This document shows, one piece after another, positions 30,988-45,800 of a stretch of DNA of 64,000 nt. The stretch comes from Pristionchus mayeri. Its lineage: Eukaryota > Nematoda > Chromadorea > Rhabditida > Neodiplogasteridae. A program made the position numbers and the translations under genes. Under the pieces are notes generated by a model. The model saw nothing but the letters and a program-made list of their open reading frames with translations, had not been told where the DNA came from and ran no database searches. The number at the start of each line of letters is the position of its first letter. Positions within the stretch are counted from its first letter, which is position 1. The stretch is from contig BTRK01000006.1 in the NCBI GenBank assembly GCA_036245805.1, positions 28,462,901 to 28,526,900 on the forward strand, written 5' to 3'.

Positions 30988-32759
30988 AGGTAGTTTATAA
31001 AATAATCTGAACAAAATTAGGTCACTATTGCGCCTCAAAATTAGGTCACTACTTGTGCCGAATTGATAACAATATAGACAAATGCGATTCCAAATTTTCA
31101 ACTTCTCCGATTAGATATCAATAGATTCAAACAGAGTTACCATAGTAATCATGATTTCATACCATCTTCTTCTTCTGCAGGGTACGTACAGAAAAGGTGC
31201 AAGGGCGAATCGGAGAGCTCGTCTTTCCAAGAGACGCATTTTCTCGTATTATTGGGTGATAACTGGATGATGTTTGAATTTCTGTAGTGTTGGGAACTGA
31301 TCAATATGATACCATTTCATTCGTCGAATATCGAAGAATTGAGCGGACTCCGGTGATCTCTCTGTGATCCAGTTCGATCTAAAATATACATCACATCAGC
31401 GCCGGAATAATTCCTGTAATGTCGAGCATGCTCGACACAAAAAAATCGAATCGTTAATTTCTCTACCAAGTGATATAATCTATATTCGAAGAACGTACAT
31501 TGTTCTCTGGAGGTTGTAAATCCGACATCGCGATGAGACACTCGAGGATGGTTCGAGTATGTCAACAATACGCACTGGAATTTAGCTTAGATTACAACAA
31601 TTGAACTTATGTGTAGCATAGGCATTGTGGGTTGCACGGTGCCGAGGGTGCAAAAATGCAAATTGGCCGCTTTTTTCTATACTATTTCCCGGATGAATTT
31701 GCTTTTCAATTTTTATATTCAATTTTCAGCTCGTATTTATATGAAAATATTATTTTAGTTATACCAGGATATACAGAACATGCCTATCTATCAGCTAGAA
31801 CACATCTCTGTAGATTTATTGCCAATATTGCTAAGTGGCGGCATGTTTTAGAAAATGTCAAATTTCATATGACTTCTATGACCTACCACCGCCTTCCCGG
31901 GCTTCCCCACCTAACCAAACCACTTGTTTCGAATCGGCCGTGCACTGGGCTATCACGCAATGTATAACACCAGCCTTGATAGCCGTTCGGAAGTACTGAT
32001 ATTTCCACTTAAATGACCAACACTAAACTTTTGCAAATCGCTAATTAATCTTTTCTCTTCTGTGAAAAGAACATTAAAATCAAATCTATCCTATTGAAAG
32101 TGCATGTGTGCATATTCATAAGAAATAAAATTCAATAGAAACGTAGAAAAATAAATATGAACATTATTTTGCTAAGTCGATTGCATGTATGACCCAACTC
32201 ACCGACACAACTCATCATTCCCAATTCAGTTTTGAAAGATCGCTGTATTTTTGTTATTTTAAATAATTTTTATATTTAATTTTCCTAGATCGTTTCAGCA
32301 TCACTGATTACATACGTGTATTAAAAGAAAGTATTTATTTAGCGCCTTTGAATAATGTCCATTGCTCTTGCTACTTGTGTAGTAATACCTGTTTCTATTG
32401 ATATGAGAGCTGCGTGTCCACATGGGCAGTCTCACTTCCAAATATGATAATCTACAAGTATTAGCTATAAATGACAGCCATTTTCAAAACAAAAATTGAA
32501 AAAAACTAGAAGAAAAAAATGTAAAAAAGAGAATTACGAAAACATCGATCGCAAGTTACGGACATTTTAATAAATCTTCCCAGGAAATTCTTCCCTGATT
32601 CAGGAAATCACCTTCATTATTGATTGGATTATAGATTTTTATTTATAATGAATTTTAAAGGAATGTAATTGAGGAATGAAATTATGCACATACAATTTTT
32701 ATGCACATACAATGATATAATTGAAAAATTAATTTTAAAATGTCTCTTGGACTTGAATG
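30988..32759. other. AT-rich DNA without a supported gene
   Basis: Reading frames here are short and AT-driven, without splice-linked exons. I see no recognisable element apart from AT-rich text. Confidence 0.5.
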
Positions 32760-33039
32760 AATATAAGGGGGGTGCGAGACGTATTTTACCAAATCAAAAG
32801 GTTTGGAAGCCGTTTGGAATAACTTTGACAGCCAAAAAAGTTGCACGTTTTATTTTTCATTCGAAATGGATGCAAGTAATGGGAAACGGAGAGGTCGAAT
32901 TTGCAATCGAAAAAATACTCAAAATTATTGCAATTTGAATTTTTTTCAGATTTTCTTTGAAAAAATGGCGTGGATGGACAGCGACGACTATGGATGCTTC
33001 ATGACTCATTATTGATTGTTCTAAGTGAATAAAATGTGC

Positions 33040-33300
33040 TTTTAAAGTTACCCAACACCCTCGAAAATGCCTTTCTATATTATTTAACAATATAATAGAA
33101 CGGGCTCTAATTAGTTAAACTGGAATAATAAAAATAATTGAAATGCAATATTTGCACCAGCGTAGAGCCGCAAAGTAAGAGTTTGAATTGCCTGATCACG
33201 CCCGCTCTCTCCCTTGTACACACTATCTCGCACGTTTTGTCGTGATCAGGGTACTCCCGCCAATTCAAATTATTTTCATGGGTGTTGGGAAACTTTAATG
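33040..33300. repeat. Foldback sequence
   Basis: AAAGTTACCCAACACCCTCG at the left matches the inverse of ATGGGTGTTGGGAAACTTTA at the right. Inside, TTTGAATTGCCTGATCACG pairs with CGTGATCAGGGTACTCCCG...TTCAAA. A diverged relative of its core (GTTGCCTGATCTTGCGCCCT) occurs at 35052-35140. Confidence 0.6.
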
Positions 33301-33699
33301 AGAAATATTGTAAATGAAGTACACATATTGACGGTCACTATGAATACGTATCAATGAATCAAGTTTATCTGGCAAAATTGAGACTAGGTAAATGCCTCTT
33401 ACGAGGTCGTGAAATTAAAGTTAACAGACGAGGACGAAACCCTGATCTGACCCTAATCTCGTCGCGTGTACGAGAGAGTATGCAAAAGTGAGAGAGCGCG
33501 GGATTACGCTGATCATTTCCGGCTTTCCCTTGAGGCTATTATTGATTTTTTTATCATTTTTGTATATTCATTCTCAACTAATTCAGCCATCGGCTATTCG
33601 ATGGAGGACAAAAAATGGGGGGTCAATTTCGTCCTCGTCCGGCAACTTTAAGAGCATAAAGTACAAATACTACGAGATAAATAAAACGACTTGCGTTCC

Positions 33700-34481
33700 T
33701 GCGACAGCAGGTGTGCTTGAAAATCGCGGCCGCATCAGACGCCACGAAGTACTCCACCTGCAGGAGGACATAATTGACGACGGTATCCTATTACCATCAC
33801 ATGCCGGCCAGGTCGTCCTCGGGCACCGACTGGTCCGCGATCACGATGGGACGGCCGCCGCGTGCACGTTGTCCTTGCAGATGACCATCACGATGGCCAG
33901 ATCCTCGTCCACCATCACCAGCGGGCCGTGCTTCAGCTCGCCCGACATGATGCCCTCGCAGTGCATGTACGACAACTCCTGACAGAGATCAAAAATCAAT
34001 CCTTGATCAGTATGACATTACTACAGTAGTCATATGTGACGGTGACCTACAGTATCCACCACTATCGTACCTTGATCTTGAGTGCGCCCTCGAAGCAGGT
34101 GGCGAAATTGAATCCTCTGCCCATCACGAGCAGCGACTTCTATTTGTAGATCTCCTTCGCGATGCTCTTGACCTCATCGTCCAACTTGAGCACCTCCGAG
34201 ATGTGACCTGAGGACGGAATCGATCAGCATTTGCTGATTTACAATGAAGTCGCAACCGGTCGGAACCAAGCAGGAACCAGAGCCAGCCACGTACCAACCA
34301 GGCACAGGAACCTAGTGATCCTTGGCCATGGTACCAGCCTCGGTACCACGGTGGCAGCCCACGTACCAGAGAGGTTGTTGAGGGCTTCGATGATGGCAGC
34401 GCGGCGTTCCTCGATCGATTTGCGATCCTCCGACAGCACGAGTGCGAGCATCAGCAGAGATAGCATCTGGGACGTGTACGC
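33700..34481 (-). pseudogene. GFAT (glutamine-fructose-6-phosphate aminotransferase) fragment, exons shuffled
   Basis: Three exons with good splice sites match the sugar isomerase (SIS) domain of GFAT, which makes glucosamine-6-phosphate. They are 34367-34481 (AYTSQMLSLLMLALVLSEDR), 34071-34207 (LLVMGRGFNFATCFEGALK) and about 33780-33978 (ELSYMHCEGIMSGELKHGPL). The second exon carries an in-frame TAG (34140-34142); the third has a frameshift or deletion near 33850 before IVIADQSVPEDDLAGM and a stop. A further exon-like piece at 33700-33757 (VEYFVASDAAAIFKHT) comes from the N-terminal half of GFAT, yet lies downstream of the C-terminal exons, so order is scrambled. The segment is much more GC-rich than its neighbours. 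It cannot encode an enzyme. Confidence 0.85.
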
Positions 34482-34906
34482 CTGCAAGGTTTCAACTATC
34501 CGGATCCTAGAACCAGATGGGCAGGCACCTCAGTGCCAGGCTACCACGGGAACCAAGCAATCAACGTCATTCTAGGAAGCATCTCGGCCAAGTTTCACGT
34601 CTATCCCTTATAATGACGCTCACCACGATTTTGAGCTGACACCGTTATATTATTTGCCTAAGAATCGAGGGTTGAATAAGAATCGAGTGAAACCCAGCAA
34701 AGCCCATAAATCTCATTTCTCCGAAACTCAGTGATTTGGGTTTATCTATGGCGCGTTTATCGTCGTCGAGCCCCCCTCATTGCTATGTCAAATCTATTAC
34801 ACTGCAACACATTTTGGACTCAAAATTGTTGCAAATTTTTTTGTGCTGTATCTGGTTCGAAACCTTTTGATTTGGTAAAATACGTCTCGCACCCCCCTTA
34901 TATTTT

Positions 34907-35170
34907 TTCTTCAAATTAACACAACAAGGGTCAAATGACCCCCTATTGTTAATTCTCCATCGGATATACGCTGCCTGGATTTGCTGGAAAATATTTCAAA
35001 AAATTTGAAAAAAATCAATAATTGCTTTTGTATGGCCGGAAATTATCAGGTTGGAGTTGCCTGATCTTGCGCCCTCTCTCTTTTGTACACTCTTTTATAT
35101 ACGCTGCTCGTGGAACCTTATGATCAGGAATTGGTCCTTGTTGGGGAAGTTCAAGGAGTATGTAGGAATA
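34907..35170. other. Short AT-rich spacer with foldback relative
   Basis: It contains the TTGCCTGATC...TTATGATCAGGA inverted motif related to 33180-33250. It forms the left flank of the mariner insertion; the flank resumes after 36450. Confidence 0.5.
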
Positions 35171-36450
35171 CAGGGTGCGGAGAAAGTATGGCAACATAGA
35201 TTTAACCATGTATTTTCTTTCAAATCCATCGCACACTTTTGAAACGGTACACAGTGTTGATCAGAGATAGTAGGAACATAACAACAAGAGGTTACTCGAT
35301 TTGACGTCCTTTGGCCTTGATGACAGCCTTGAGACGAGAAGGAACTGACTCGGCGACGTCCCGAAGGTACTTCTTATCGATCTTGTTCCATGCCTTTTGA
35401 AGGGAGTTCTCGAAACTCTCCAGATTCGGGTGGCGGGTAGAGGAAGCTTCCTTCTCCAGTACCGACCACACGCTAAAGTCGAGGGGGTTGAGATCGGGGC
35501 TGTTGGAGGGCCATTCATTCGATGGAATGAAATCGGGAAGATGCCTTGTGCACCAGGTCTGGGTGAATTTTGCGGAATGAGCAGGGGCAGAATCTTGCTG
35601 GAAGGTCCAATGTCGCCCTTTGAAGTGGGAACGTGACCAGGGAAGAAGGGTCTTCTCCAGGATCTCCTTGATGTAATAGTGCTTCTTCACTTTGGCACCG
35701 GGCTTGACGAAACAAGGGGAGTCTTGCCGGTGGAACACACTCCTGCCCAAACCATCACTGACTGGGGGTGCGAAACTCGAGAGACGGTTCTGCCTCTGGC
35801 GTTGGCTTGTTCGGCAGACTGGGCGATCACTCTCATATTCTGACTATTGAAGACCTGCTCCACAGTGAAGATCTTCTCAATCTAGTAGACAGTCGTAAGA
35901 TGCTCGGCCCTCGCCAGGAGCTTCTTGCATCTCTTCAGTCTCTTTTCCTTGTAAATGGCAGTCAGACCATGGCTCTTTCGCATTTTGTAAGGGTGAGACA
36001 TGAGTCCAGAATGGACGATCTTGCGGACCGAATGCTCGTCAATCCCGAGGTCATGGGCCATCTTCCTCATAGATCTCTTGGGATTGCGTGCAACTCGCTT
36101 CTGCACGATTTTCTTGTTCTTCTGAGTGACAGCGGAGTGAGGTCTGCCCACTCTAGGACGGTTATTAGTCGTGCCAAGCTCCTTGAAACGGCGGATGGTC
36201 TTGAACACGGTCGGACGGGAAACACGTAGTTTCTTCGAGATTTCAGCTGGTCTCTCTCCAGTAGTCCAACGGTCAATAATTGATTGCCAGAACTGGTGGG
36301 GTCGAACCATGACTAGGGGAAACTAATTGAAGTGCGCGTTGAATACCTCTTACTATTTGCTAAATCGTGTCATAACATGTATTAACAGGTTTCCAGGAAT
36401 GATGAAATATTTGAGTTCAAACTTTGTTTCCATACTTTCTCCGCACCCTG
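35171..36450 (-). mobile_element. 1.28-kb mariner-like (DD37D) transposon copy
   Basis: The terminal inverted repeats are identical for 21 bp, starting CAGGGTGCGGAGAAAGTATG, and are flanked by TA on both sides. The single internal gene runs on the minus strand and encodes a transposase of the IS630-Tc1-mariner superfamily. The third catalytic Asp follows the second by 37 residues (QQDSAPAH ... SPDLNPLD), as in the maT/DD37D group. Complete ends with a damaged gene make it a non-autonomous copy. Confidence 0.92.
35292..36310 (-). pseudogene. Broken DD37D mariner-like transposase
   Basis: The ATG at 36310 opens a helix-turn-helix N-terminus (FWQSIIDRWTTGERPAEISK, then RVSRPTVFKTIRRF) followed by the GRPHSA linker. 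An in-frame TAG at 35882-35884 falls just at the first catalytic block; the residue expected to be the first Asp (before EKIFTVE) reads Ile. A one-base deletion near 35707-35713 shifts the frame. The second and third blocks follow intact (TFQQDSAPAHSAKF, SNSPDLNPLDFSVW), ending at 35292. Three separate lesions indicate an inactive copy. Confidence 0.88.
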
Positions 36451-39811: not shown

Positions 39812-42800
39812 CTCCCTTCCTCTCTGTCACTCACATAGATTGGGGCAGCATACATCGGGAGGGCCCTGTCTACAGAAGTATCCCTGGGGGCATCCAATGG
39901 ACTCGGTGGTGTTTCCACAGAGAACGGGAGCGGATCCTCCAAGGGGTTCTCCCGAGGGGCAAGTGCCTGGGGGCAGATCTGACGCCAATCTCTGTTGTTG
40001 TGTTGCAGTATCTGCAGAGAGAGAGAGATGAAGAGTGAAAGAAGGAGATGGAGGGGGAGGAGGAGAGGGAAGACTCACCTCTCACTCCCTTCACACAAGT
40101 CTCTTCACAATCAACCATCGATCCGAAGTTGTTCGCATTTCCATTGCAACCGGAATAGTGGAAGAGACGGCAAGAATCGGATGACTTGTCGTAGAAGTAT
40201 CTGAATGATTCGAGTGATCCCCTCCCCCTTCCCTCCCCCCTCCCCTCCCCCCTCCCCTCCCCCTTCCCTCACTCACCTCAGATGTTGTTCTGCGCACTCT
40301 CCCTTCTGGAGGGGGTAATCACACGGAGTCTTCCTTCCCTTCCCTGGATGTCTTCTCATCGTCTTCGCTGCTCTTGCAGATGAGATCTGTTTGATGGGAG
40401 CTCCATCGAATCGAAGGGGATCGAGAGAGAAGAGACCCGTCTCCCTCTTCCTCCGAGACGAAGAGATCACTGAGTCACGCAGACGTCTGCAATCCACTCA
40501 TTGCTACTCCCCCTCCCCCCCCCCCCTCTCCCCCCCCCCCTCTTCCCTTCCATACCTGATATTGAGATGGCCAAATCGTTTGTATCCTTGTTTGGTTTCC
40601 TCTCCGTTGTATCCTCCGAATACGTGCTTGTCATAGGGGTCCTCATCTTCGGGACAACAGAAGTAGTCCAGACCGTTGAAGTAGCAGACGGACTTATCGG
40701 GACACTGATTCTTGCCTGGCAGACACATCACGGGACGACCATCCGCGTATCTGAGAGAAGAGATTGTAGGGGGAGGGGGGGAGGGGGAGGGGTAGGGGGA
40801 CTCACTTCAATTCGGGGGCTGAATTGGGACAGGAAGGGAGTGCGGGATGAGAGGGGACGTCATCCTCCTCCTCGACTTCAGCTGCATTTTCAATGGGGAG
40901 TCTCCCATTGGACTCTGCGAATGTCTTGATTCCATTGGCTCTCCGTCCAGTCTGATAGTTCACTGTCTCAGGAGGGGAAGGGGCGACAATGGGGAGTTCT
41001 TCTCCATTCACATCCACTACATTCTTGATGGGATCAGTGTGGTAGTTCTTCTGAACTGTCTTCGATCCATGCACAGCTGGGACGACGCCATCAGGAATCT
41101 TCTCGTTCAGATCAGTGGAGTCATCGATTGAGGTCAAAGGGGGGATGGATGGGGTGTTGAGGGGGGAAGCATCATCAGATCCCATTAAGGGATCCTCTCC
41201 TTCTCCTTCGTAATCTTCTTCTTCTTCCTCTTCACTCAAAGGTTCATTCGCCTCCATCATATCGGAGGGAGTGCACACTCTCTCGCAATCTGAGAGAGAA
41301 TCGAATTGATTCGTGTTTCCTCCCACTCCTTCGAAGATGAATTGTTCGCATCGAAGAGACTTCATCGAGAAGAACCTGGGGAGAGAGAGAGAGAGATACC
41401 CTGACTATCCCTTGATGACTCGATAACTAACCACTTGGAAGCGAATCCTCCTCCAGTGCCACTATCCTTGGACAGAGTGCACTTCTCTGGCAGTTGAGAG
41501 AGGAGAGTCGCTGATTCTCCCTTTGATCCACATCTCACTTCACACGTCTTCCTCTCCGCGAAATTGTTCCCGTTCCCACCACATCCTCCGTATGAGAACT
41601 GTTCACATCGAGAGGAAGCAGGATTGAAGTACCTGAGAGAGAGAGAGAGAGGAATGAGTGGATGGGTGAGTCAACTGACCATCTGGGCGAGTAATCGAAG
41701 CACGGGCCAGCTTCTGCCGATAGACTGCACAGTGCAGTAGGATGAGACTCGGCCACTGAGGGAGAGATCTCTTCTGGAAGGAATCAGTGACACTACAGTC
41801 TCAAATGGTTCATTCAGAAGGGAAAGAGGGAGTCTCTCACCAGGGAGAACTGCGATTCCAACGGGACCATCGGGGATTGGCTGTCTTCCTGCGCCATCGG
41901 GAAGGACTGCAACAGGCACCATCGTCGTCGTTGAAGGAGAAGTCGTCGAGGGGGAAGACGTCGAGGGAGAAGAAGGAACATCTGAATCATCTCCTTCCTC
42001 TTCCTCTTCCTCTTCGTATTCAGTGTCCATCTCAGATGGAACGGGGAAGACTATCTCCTCCTTCTTCTCCTCCTTGAGAGAGGGGATTGGCTGGGAGAAG
42101 GGAGTGAGTGTCACTGAAGGAGTGGGAAGGGGGGAGAAGGTGGAAGCAGGAGTGGGAACAGGCGCGAACGTGCTCTCAGCCACAGGGAATGGAGCGAACG
42201 TCGACTCTGCCAATGGGAATGGATTGAAGGTGCTGGGAGGAAGGGGAATCGAGGGAGTTGTTGAATCAGCCAATGAATTGGGAGAAGGAGAAGGGATGGG
42301 GGAGGTGACTTCCTCGAGGGAAATATCCTCGCCCTCTCCCAGATTAACTTCCAATCCTCCCTGGATGGCCTGTTCAGGGGAAGAGTGCACTGGGGATGCA
42401 GATTCATGCGGACGAGAACCTTCCTTGATAGAAGAATCAGAGGGGGGAGGAGTGGGAAGAGTGACGGTGGAGGAAGGGAGGGTAGGAGGGAGGGTGGAGG
42501 AAGGAGTGGGGAGGCGAGAAGCGGAGGTGGCGGTGTTGCCCCCCTCGATGCGGTGGAGGGGAAGCTTCTTTGTGGGAGAGACAGACGAAGCATGCACCGA
42601 AGAAGAGACATCTGAAGCAGATGCAGATTGAACATGCTCATGCTGAGGAAGAGGAGAAAGTGATGGGAGTGGAAGTGAGGAGGGAGGGTTAGGAACTGAA
42701 GGAACTGAAGGCAGTGAAGGCAGTGAGGGGAGTGAAGGGAGTGCAGTAACTGAGGAGAGTGAAGGGAGTGAGTGAATGCGTTCAATCGAAGGTATGTCGA

Positions 42801-45800
42801 TGTGCCGAGACTCACGAGTGATTGACTCATTCATACTCTTCAGAAAGATGTCTAGATTATCAGGAGGACGGAATCGATTGGGGATCGATTGAATGTGAGA
42901 TGGAGGAGGAAGAAGGAAACGAGGAGTATCCTCGAATACGGAGACCGGCAATGGTGTCGTATCTTCCTCTGAAGAAGGAAGAGTGGAATGACCATCGAGT
43001 GAACTGAGGAATTCACGAAGGGAGACAATAGGGGATGGAGGGAGAAGAGGGGTCAACTGAGGAGAAGTACTGTTTGTTATTATATCTGCGATGGAGGAGA
43101 TCATGGACGTTATCTCATTCACTTCCTCGTTCGAGAAGGAGGAATTGAAGGAGGAATTGGAGAATGAGGAGGAGGAGGAGGAGGAAGGCACTTGAACACC
43201 ATCCATTTCAGAGAGGATATCACTCTCTTCTTCACTCAATTCGTCTTCTGATTCAGATGAAGTCATCGTTGAATGCTCAATGGAGATGGGCGATTCAGTT
43301 GATGTCGTCGATTCCTCAGTCGTCGTTGATTGAATGGATGGAGGAATGGAAGATCTCTCACTCTCACTCTTCTCATTCGTATCAAAGGAAGTAATTCTCT
43401 CAGTGCTCGTAACTCTCTCATTCATAGTCAAGTTCATCTTCACGTCTTCCTCATCACCTTCTGAGATGATCACGTAATCTTCCGTTCCCTCTTCCTCCTC
43501 TTCCTCCTCTTCCTCTTCGTATCTTGTTGTCTCCTCTTCCTTCATCCCTCCAGTCGATGTTTCATCTTCTTCCGAAGAATCATCTTCATTAGTCTCCACG
43601 ACAGACATCACTTTCGGCAGAGTTATATTGATAGTGGGCGTAACAGTGGTGGTAGATGTGCTTCCACTGGTAGTCGTCACCATCTCGGGAATGGTCACAA
43701 TGGTAGGCGATGTGGATTCAACCACTTCTTCCATTGTCTTCTCCTTCTTTCTGTTCTTCTCAATCCTCTTATCTTTCTCTCCTTCTTCTCTTCCTCTACC
43801 TTCTGCTCAATCTTCTTCTCTTCCTCTTCCTTCTTCTCAATCTGCTTCTCTTCCTCTTCCTCTTCCTCTTCCTCTTCATTCTTCTCCTTTTCCTTCTGTT
43901 CCTCTTCCTTCTTCTCAATCTTCTTCTGTTCCTCTTCCTTCTTTTCATTCTCCTTCTCATCCTCTACCTTCTGCTCAATCTTCTTCTCTTCCTTCTTCTC
44001 AATCTTCTTCTCTTCCTTCTTCTCAATCTTCTTCTCTTCCTTCTTCTCAATCTTCTTCTCTTCCTTCTTCTCAATCTTCTTCTCTTCCTTCTTCTCAATC
44101 TTCTTCTCTTCCTCTTCCTTCTTCTCAATCTGCTTCTCTTCCTCTTCCTCTACCTCTTCCTCTTCATTCTTCTCCTTTTCCTTCTCTTCCTCTTCCTTCT
44201 TCTCAATCTTCTTCTGTTCCTCTTCCATCTTCTCATTCTCCTTCGTACGAGTAGTCGTCACTACTTGAGCATGAGTGATACTCTCCTTCTCTTCTTCTTC
44301 AATGGTTGTCGTCTCAATCTTTTCTTCCTTCTTCTTGGGTATAGGTCTAACCCTTACTCTGAGAGGGGTGGGCCTTCTCGATAGAGGCACTACTTCTTCA
44401 CTCCTCTTCACTTCAATTCCAGGAGCTTCTTCATCGATTGGAAGAGGTATGAGTATTCGTGCTCTCTCTGCAGTCGGATGTGCCAATATCTTCGTTCTCG
44501 ACCCTTTCACTCGATTCATTTCTACTTCTGGTTCTTCTTCGTGTAGACTGGTTAATGGTGTGAGATCGACTACCCTCTGGTGGTGCATTCGTGCATTCTC
44601 AGAATTGGATCTCATCATCTGCTCTCCTACTCTTATCATGTGCTGTATGTGTGGTGCGAGGGGGTGCGATGGTGCGATTCCCTCATTGCCATCGGGAAGG
44701 TGGAAGAGGTGTAGTGTGCCAGCTGGCATTGGTGAAGGGTGTGAATGGTGGATTGGGAATGGAGGAGGAATCTCACCATTCTTCTCCTTCTCGAAAGAGT
44801 GATGGAAAGTGTCGACATCTTGGATGAATCGATCGAATATTTCCTTGGGAAGAGTCTGATCTTGAGGGACGATAACTCGGGGTGGATTGGGGACTCTGAC
44901 TACTCCTTCCACTGCACTCTTCTTCACTCCTTCATCCACTGATTCCTCCACTCTCGTCCTCTCCTCGTGTCCATTCACTCCTCTCGCAGTCGTGTGAACA
45001 GTGGATGGTCGAGTGGGCACAGGACGACGAGTCGTTGTCTCTCTTCTAGTAGTCGTGCGGGTCGTGGTTGGGACTGGATGGGTCGTGGTCTGGGCAGCAC
45101 GGGTCGAGGTCGGAGCAGATCGGGTGGTGGTGGCAGGGTGAGCAGTGGTTGTCACAGGCTTGGTAGCAGTCTTGATCGGAGACTTGGGAAGGGCAGTGGC
45201 CTCTGGTCCCTCGTGCTCCAATGCCCATTGCATTATCTCGTCGATGGGGATAGGCTTGAAGGTGCGGACTACGTCGGAGGGGATTGGATGGAGTGGATGG
45301 GGAGAAGCAGTGGAAGTAGGGAGAGGGAGAGGAGAGGAAGCAGTGCCTGGAGTCTCCATGAAGGGCAAGGACTTGTCTCCATTCTCAGAGAGACGACGGG
45401 AGATCATCGCCAGAGTCGGATCTGCTTCAGAGAGGAAATCTGCAATCGAGAATGGAGCATGCAAACTGAGAGAAAGAGAACACAGACAACGAAGAAGTTA
45501 GACATGCAAGGAGAGAGTGATGACTCCCGTGGACTCTCGGGGTTAGAGAGACGAGAGAACACGGGGAGAGGAGAGAGTGCAGTCTGGATAGAGAAGGAGG
45601 GAGGGAGGGAGGGAGGGAGGGAGGAGGAGGAGGAGGGACTACCAATGGACGACCTGGATTAGAACACCCCACTCTGACGAGATCCGTTGAAGGGAAGATA
45701 TTAGAGATAGGAAGGGCATTCAATGGAGGGAGATATCACTCACTTGAGAATCGGGCGCAGTGAATCTCGCATTCCCTCTGGGAGAAGAAGTGATTACGAT

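What the first reader, a model, noticed from the sequence alone, without database searches (positions are those of the whole stretch)
32760..34906. Captured and shuffled GFAT gene fragment between matched transposon ends
A GC-rich GFAT fragment with intact introns, one nonsense codon and a frameshift lies between perfect 43-bp TIRs. SIS-domain exons precede an exon piece from the N-terminal half, the reverse of the normal gene order. Retained introns rule out retroposition. This is the pattern expected from DNA-level gene capture (Pack-TIR behaviour), rarely documented in nematodes.
Basis: partly seen in the sequence, partly recalled or inferred. Interest (0 to 1): 0.75.

Follow-up and report, generated by a model that had tools for sequence, protein, structure and literature searches.

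The report
GFAT gene pieces inside a transposon
In the nematode Pristionchus mayeri a small cut-and-paste transposon has picked up and rearranged pieces of a sugar-metabolism gene, an uncommon but already described process; here the pieces seem to come from a version of the gene that had diverged from the one the worm carries today.

Summary
Window 32760-34904 (Pristionchus mayeri, contig C6) has 45-bp perfect terminal inverted repeats (49 bp, 1 mismatch). Inside lie three pieces of GFAT with two complete introns, in the order late exons, then an earlier exon. The closest full gene is on another contig (C4). The stop codon is real. The frameshift is not an independent indel: it falls at a 114-bp deletion that joins two pieces.

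The best explanation is a single-copy Pack-TIR: gap repair with template switching inside a TIR element, then two TTAA-flanked MITE insertions. Movement after capture is not shown: no second copy was found and no TSD longer than TA/TATA exists. The kind is known in nematodes (four Pack-TIRs in the worm reference genome, Tan 2021; Turmoil-1, Sela 2008).

New here is a clock conflict. Fragment and resident GFAT differ by about 16-17% at synonymous and intron sites, but by only 7 amino-acid or stop changes in 364 nonsynonymous sites and by no exon indels. TIR identity and nested MITEs also point to a young element. If rates are comparable, most divergence preceded capture, so the donor was a functional but diverged GFAT: a lost paralogue, an old haplotype, or another lineage. 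Which one cannot be settled with the data held.

The parts
32760..32808 (+). left terminal inverted repeat (45 bp perfect with the right one, 49 bp with 1 mismatch)
34856..34904 (-). right terminal inverted repeat
32809..33041 (+). left subterminal part of the element; its first ~96 bp belong to the 148-bp, 89% match to a solo end at C1:7241281-7241428, for the rest no other copy was found (query 32755-33035)
33042..33298 (.). nested MITE 1 with TTAA on both sides; other genomic copies up to 98% identical
33299..33414 (.). element-specific DNA, no other copy found in the genome (query 33297-33410)
33415..33651 (.). nested MITE 2 with TTAA on both sides; other genomic copies up to 97% identical
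33652..33710 (.). element-specific DNA, no other copy found (query 33640-33720)
33711..33757 (-). GFAT piece C: exon part encoding VEYFVASDAAAIFKH (resident: VEYFVASDAAAIVEH), upstream of A and B in the normal gene
33758..33799 (-). acceptor site and shortened remnant of the intron upstream of piece C (weak homology), then junction to piece B
33800..33865 (-). GFAT piece B: part of the exon encoding ARGGRPIVIADQSVPEDDLAGM
33866..33978 (-). GFAT piece A, exon A3 (ELSYMHCEGIMSG...); its end is joined to piece B by a 114-bp deletion
33979..34070 (-). retained intron A2-A3 (92 bp; 13 differences in 86 aligned bases)
34071..34207 (-). GFAT piece A, exon A2 (GHISEVLKL...); stop codon TAG at 34140-34142
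34208..34366 (-). retained intron A1-A2 (159 bp; 22 differences in 158 aligned bases)
34367..34481 (-). GFAT piece A, exon A1 (AYTSQMLSLLM...)
34482..34553 (-). part of the intron upstream of exon A1
34653..34754 (+). single terminal fragment of another repeat family (three fuller copies examined are palindromes of about 1-1.5 kb); partner end absent here
34755..34855 (+). right subterminal part of the element, no other copy among the 40 of 59 candidates scored

Best explanation
This is a single-copy Pack-TIR: a low-copy TIR DNA transposon that carries pieces of a host gene. Inferred mechanism: a double-strand break or excision gap inside the element was repaired by copying DNA from a GFAT gene, with template switches that dropped 114 bp between two pieces, returned to an earlier exon out of order, and probably also picked up the end of another repeat. 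Later two TTAA-type MITEs inserted into it. In-place gap filling is judged more likely than capture elsewhere followed by a jump. The donor was most likely a GFAT gene still under purifying selection that had already diverged from today's resident gene by very roughly 13-14% at neutral sites (a lost paralogue, an old divergent haplotype, or another lineage). The fragment is most likely a dead pseudogene piece, not a new gene; transcription was not tested. Shown: anatomy, order, copies found, divergence counts. Inferred: gap repair, identity of the donor, order of events.
For: TIR pair with element-specific DNA on both sides of the GFAT pieces. One GFAT gene found elsewhere, on C4 (one search used 386 residues of the later part), and no further matches to its 18-kb locus in the window. 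Complete introns kept. Order A-B-C against C-A-B. Divergence: 17 synonymous codon changes (110 sites, dS 0.173), introns 35 of 244 (JC 0.159), against 7 nonsynonymous or stop changes in 364 sites (dN 0.019) and 0 exon indels in 474 bases against 5 indel events in 244 aligned intron bases. If half the divergence had accrued neutrally on the fragment, 29.0-31.5 nonsynonymous changes are expected, Poisson P 1.2e-6 to 1.6e-7, and 0 of 3000 simulations per kappa value (1, 2, 4) gave 7 or fewer; a share of 10-20% is compatible. All 7 nonsynonymous changes run GC to AT, intron changes do not (13 against 17). TIRs 1 difference in 49, where equal split predicts about 8.5 (P 0.002). Nested MITE 1 up to 98% identical to other copies.
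Against: No second copy and no clear TSD, so mobility of the captured unit is unproven. Junction microhomology is slight (1 bp at A/B; the others are blurred by divergence and were not tested). Donor gene and element are on different contigs, against the cis bias that Tan 2021 reports for single-copy Pack-TIRs. The donor inference rests on 158 codons and 244 intron bases, assumes equal neutral rates in fragment and resident gene, and is uneven between pieces (B 1 difference in 67, C 6 in 45). No outgroup DNA was available to polarise the synonymous changes. Synonymous changes lean GC to AT towards the fragment (10 against 4), which would fit some extra drift on the fragment. TIR identity can also be kept by gene conversion.
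Confidence: 0.75

Rival explanations
1. Ordinary capture from the direct ancestor of the resident GFAT gene long ago, followed by neutral decay of the fragment.
For: The resident gene is the closest match found in the genome; simplest history; synonymous changes lean GC to AT towards the fragment.
Against: Expected 29.0-31.5 nonsynonymous changes on the fragment, 7 seen; 0 of 3000 simulations at equal split for each of three kappa values; no exon indels; near-identical TIRs.
Confidence: 0.15
2. A GFAT copy decayed in place and the transposon ends inserted around it later.
For: Both TIRs could in principle be separate insertions; a third, solo end exists on C1.
Against: Shuffled order; no other match to the C4 GFAT locus within the 64-kb window; the 2 ends are an inverted pair with 45 identical bases while only 3 such ends were found in 290.8 Mb; element-specific DNA lies inside the TIRs on both sides.
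Confidence: 0.04
3. Retroposition or reverse transcription of an unspliced transcript.
For: The three pieces share one orientation.
Against: Two complete introns; no poly-A seen by eye; the missing stretch between A and B is not an intron but parts of two exons plus the intron; TIRs at both ends.
Confidence: 0.02
4. The element captured GFAT elsewhere and then jumped here as a unit (transposition-dependent), rather than being filled in place. This is a variant of the best explanation, so its odds overlap with it.
For: Donor gene on another contig; flanks compatible with a TA/TATA target duplication.
Against: No second copy found; the TA/TATA match is weak because the ends lie in an AT palindrome; only three ends of the family were found in this genome.
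Confidence: 0.3

Closest known systems
Single-copy Pack-TIRs of animal genomes, including four in the worm reference genome (Tan et al. 2021, PMC8277862; abstract, sections 7-8 and found passages read)
   Same: TIR DNA transposon ends around duplicated non-TE DNA; single copy; explained by gap filling with template switching
   Different: Donor on another contig, whereas Tan reports 59.8% intrachromosomal; three pieces in changed order; donor appears to have diverged before capture, while that study kept cases whose parental copy could be unambiguously identified
Turmoil-1 of C. elegans (Sela et al. 2008, PMC2572040, part 1 of 2 of the text read)
   Same: nematode DNA transposon holding fragments of host protein-coding genes (rsp-2, cpg-3), one of them two exons with their intron
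   Different: Fragments lie in the 760-bp ITRs of a Harbinger element with one complete and eight partial copies; here the fragment is internal, single copy, and the superfamily is not identified
Pack-MULEs of plants (recalled, and as described in PMC8277862)
   Same: captured gene fragments inside TIR elements
   Different: no 5-12 bp TSD, no second copy found; no transposase part was found to classify it

Membership tests
Pack-TIR (as used by Tan 2021) | inverted terminal repeats of a DNA transposon at both ends | tested here: met
   45 bp perfect; a third end on C1 shows that the TIR is a repeat
Pack-TIR (as used by Tan 2021) | internal non-TE sequence with an identifiable parental copy elsewhere | tested here: met
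   GFAT on C4; the direct donor may be a lost relative of it
Pack-TIR (as used by Tan 2021) | target site duplication | tested here: inconclusive
   only TA/TATA (or AT/ATAT) possible in an AT palindrome
Pack-TIR (as used by Tan 2021) | identifiable transposon of the same family without the captured DNA | tested here: inconclusive
   only a 148-bp solo end at 89% identity; no full element found
Transposition-dependent (multicopy) Pack-TIR | more than one copy with the same captured fragment | tested here: not met
Tc1/mariner superfamily | TA target duplication and DDE/D transposase (recalled) | tested here: inconclusive
   TA possible; no transposase seen: the 49-aa left-end ORF has no Pfam match up to E 5
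Pack-MULE / hAT / Harbinger / piggyBac | 9-11 bp / 8 bp / 3-bp / TTAA target duplication (sizes recalled, 3 bp for Harbinger also in PMC2572040) | tested here: not met
   no direct repeat of 3 or of 5-12 bp, and no TTAA, at 25 mirrored end positions
Processed pseudogene | introns removed | tested here: not met
   two complete introns

The most novel reading that the evidence does not exclude
The element captured its GFAT pieces in another species or a strongly isolated lineage and brought them into P. mayeri by horizontal transfer or hybridisation. This would explain a donor very roughly 13-14% diverged at neutral sites, young TIRs, and a transposon family with only three ends found in the genome. 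It would be a DNA transposon carrying a datable piece of a foreign host's gene.
Probability: 0.15. Interest if true: 0.75.

Novelty: new member of a known kind. Interest (0 to 1): 0.4.

Why it matters
A captured gene fragment with intact introns is a fossil of the donor gene at the time of capture. When damage in the fragment is far smaller than its neutral divergence from the resident gene, the fragment preserves a GFAT version that was not found elsewhere in this assembly. Pack-TIRs could therefore be used to detect lost paralogues, ancient haplotypes or foreign donors in nematodes. The capture itself adds one worked case in Pristionchus to a known process.

Tried and rejected
Intron-exact loss: a first BLAST suggested that exactly one intron was missing between pieces A and B, which would have pointed to RNA. 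The sequences show that the gap also takes parts of both exons, so this was dropped. Partial 3' GFAT duplicate on C4 (13928037 region) as donor: it overlaps the fragment only in 45 bp of A and in B. In the 45 bp it differs from the fragment at 3 bases, the main gene at 1; at one base it agrees with the fragment against the main gene. That is too little to name or exclude it; the main gene is closer. More TIR copies: a 26-mer and a 22-mer with up to 3 mismatches gave 3 real ends; the fourth hit of the 22-mer (L049) has a G run and no further TIR, and the reversed control also gave 1. Transposase: Pfam gave nothing for the left-end ORF. A short 24-27 bp resemblance of the DNA after piece C to exon A1 was seen by eye and dropped as possible chance. 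Microhomology was not tested statistically. A paper search with loose terms listed 20 of 31,539 papers, none of them with the name P. mayeri; the species name alone gave 5 papers, none on gene capture by title.

What is said on novelty in nematodes rests on searches only.

Full report
Where it is. The window is C6:28462901-28526900 of a 290.8-Mb genome in 73 contigs. The best database match to the GFAT of contig C4 is a 739-aa protein annotated as Pristionchus mayeri ('partial' in its record), on a contig of 48,753,889 bases, the length of C4. P. mayeri is a self-fertilising hermaphrodite with few males (passage in PMC9449363).

The observation. The inverted ends are real: 54-nt arms at 94%, with a 45-bp perfect core, 32760-32804 / 34860-34904. 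Between them are three GFAT pieces on the - strand. A is 33866-34489 plus upstream intron to 34553, B is 33800-33866, C is 33711-33757 plus a short intron remnant. In the resident gene the order is C, A, B; here it is A, B, C. The junction A/B is a 114-bp deletion with 1 shared base that removes the end of one exon, a whole intron and the start of the next exon. The nonsense codon is at 34140-34142.

Copies. A genome search with 386 residues of the later part of GFAT gave 14 matches: 10 on C4 and 4 in this window. The C4 matches are one gene plus a 3'-end duplicate nearby. The TIR occurs 3 times in the genome at up to 3 mismatches in 26 bases: the two ends here and one solo end at C1:7241288; a 22-mer search added only a chance hit. 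The left end matches the C1 end over 148 bp at 89%. The stretches 33297-33410 and 33640-33720 have no other copy found. These searches score a limited number of candidates (40 of 2111, 40 of 59) and skip very common words, so counts of repeats are lower bounds. Two MITEs sit inside, each flanked by TTAA, with other copies up to 98% and 97% identical. At 34653-34754 lies one end of another repeat; three fuller copies examined are palindromes of about 1-1.5 kb.

Target site. The ends lie in ATATA/TATAT. Over 25 mirrored end positions only 2-bp (TA, AT, one TT) and 4-bp (TATA, ATAT) direct repeats occur; none of 3 or of 5-12 bp. The superfamily stays open; Tc1/mariner is allowed, not shown. The left-end 49-aa ORF has no Pfam match.

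Clocks. Over 158 codons fragment and resident differ by 17 synonymous and 7 nonsynonymous or stop changes: dS 0.173, dN 0.019. Introns differ at 35 of 244 aligned bases (JC 0.159). There are 5 indel events in introns and none in 474 exon bases (Fisher P 0.005). Of the seven amino-acid or stop changes, four (the stop, L to F, A to V, E to K) hit positions that are the same in the four Pristionchus proteins, one (V to F) a position that is V or I, and two (L to I, R to S) variable positions (proteins, compared by eye). If the fragment had carried half of the neutral divergence, 29.0-31.5 such changes would be expected; Poisson P is 1.2e-6 to 1.6e-7. Simulation at kappa 1, 2 and 4 (resident branch with omega 0.03) gave 7 or fewer in 0 of 3000 runs each at a 50% share, in 0.03-0.6% at 30%, 3.6-20% at 20%, and 47-77% at 10%. 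The TIR pair (1 of 49) and the nested MITEs point to the same small age. So probably no more than about a fifth of the divergence arose after capture, if fragment and resident gene mutate at like rates. All seven nonsynonymous changes are GC to AT, as expected of drift in a dead GC-rich fragment; intron changes are 13 GC to AT and 17 AT to GC (Fisher against synonymous plus intron P 0.03, small numbers, chosen after seeing the data). Against this, synonymous changes lean 10 to 4 towards AT in the fragment, and pieces are uneven (B 1 in 67, C 6 in 45).

Donor. Three readings fit. A lost paralogue: C4 holds a broken 3' duplicate of GFAT that is itself a mosaic, 16 differences in 132 bases at one end, then 0 in 110 and 2 in 150, then 14 in 342, so a diverged second copy of at least this part exists next to the gene. 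In the 45 bases of piece A where it overlaps the fragment it is further from the fragment (3 differences) than the main gene is (1), yet shares one base with the fragment against the main gene: undecided. A run of 500 N lies upstream of the GFAT start (an assembly gap or a stretch withheld by the tool), so a missing copy cannot be excluded. An old haplotype: hyper-divergent haplotypes cover about a fifth of the C. elegans genome (passage in PMC10461856). Another lineage: transfer of DNA transposons into diplogastrids is reported (PMC9297572, passages). My weights given a diverged donor are about 0.4, 0.4 and 0.2; they are judgement, not computed.

Mechanism. Tan et al. explain single-copy Pack-TIRs by gap filling after breaks inside TEs, with template switching, microhomology (median 2 bp) at one or both breakpoints in 67.6%, and report 59.8% intrachromosomal donors and only 1.4% multicopy cases (PMC8277862 sections 7 and 8). 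A single copy with several template pieces fits; the donor on another contig is in the minority class.

Known or new. Four Pack-TIRs are reported in the worm reference genome and Turmoil-1 carries two host fragments. The case is therefore a new member of a known kind. Its special feature is the evidence for a donor that was not found in the assembly.

Noticed in passing
window 35292-36310, - strand: Two ORFs (152 and 142 aa) that look by eye like a broken mariner/Tc1-type transposase just outside the element.
   Followed up: no
C4:13928037 region (in L011): Partial 3' duplicate of GFAT, mosaic in divergence: 16 of 132, then 0 of 110, 2 of 150 and 14 of 342 differences from the main gene, suggesting gene conversion or two-step origin.
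   Followed up: partly
L019, L022, L029: Family of palindromic (foldback) elements of about 1-1.5 kb, one end of which lies in the insert at 34653-34754.
   Followed up: partly
window 32917-32936 and 34818-34837: A 20-base direct repeat (90%) in the left and right subterminal parts of the element.
   Followed up: no
window 34933-35104: A degraded relative of nested MITE 2 (68%) and a 44-base piece like MITE 1 (80%) lie just right of the element.
   Followed up: no
window 40802-45464, - strand: Large low-complexity ORFs (187, 687 and 589 aa), the first with a cysteine pattern that resembles the end of a Kunitz domain by eye.
   Followed up: no
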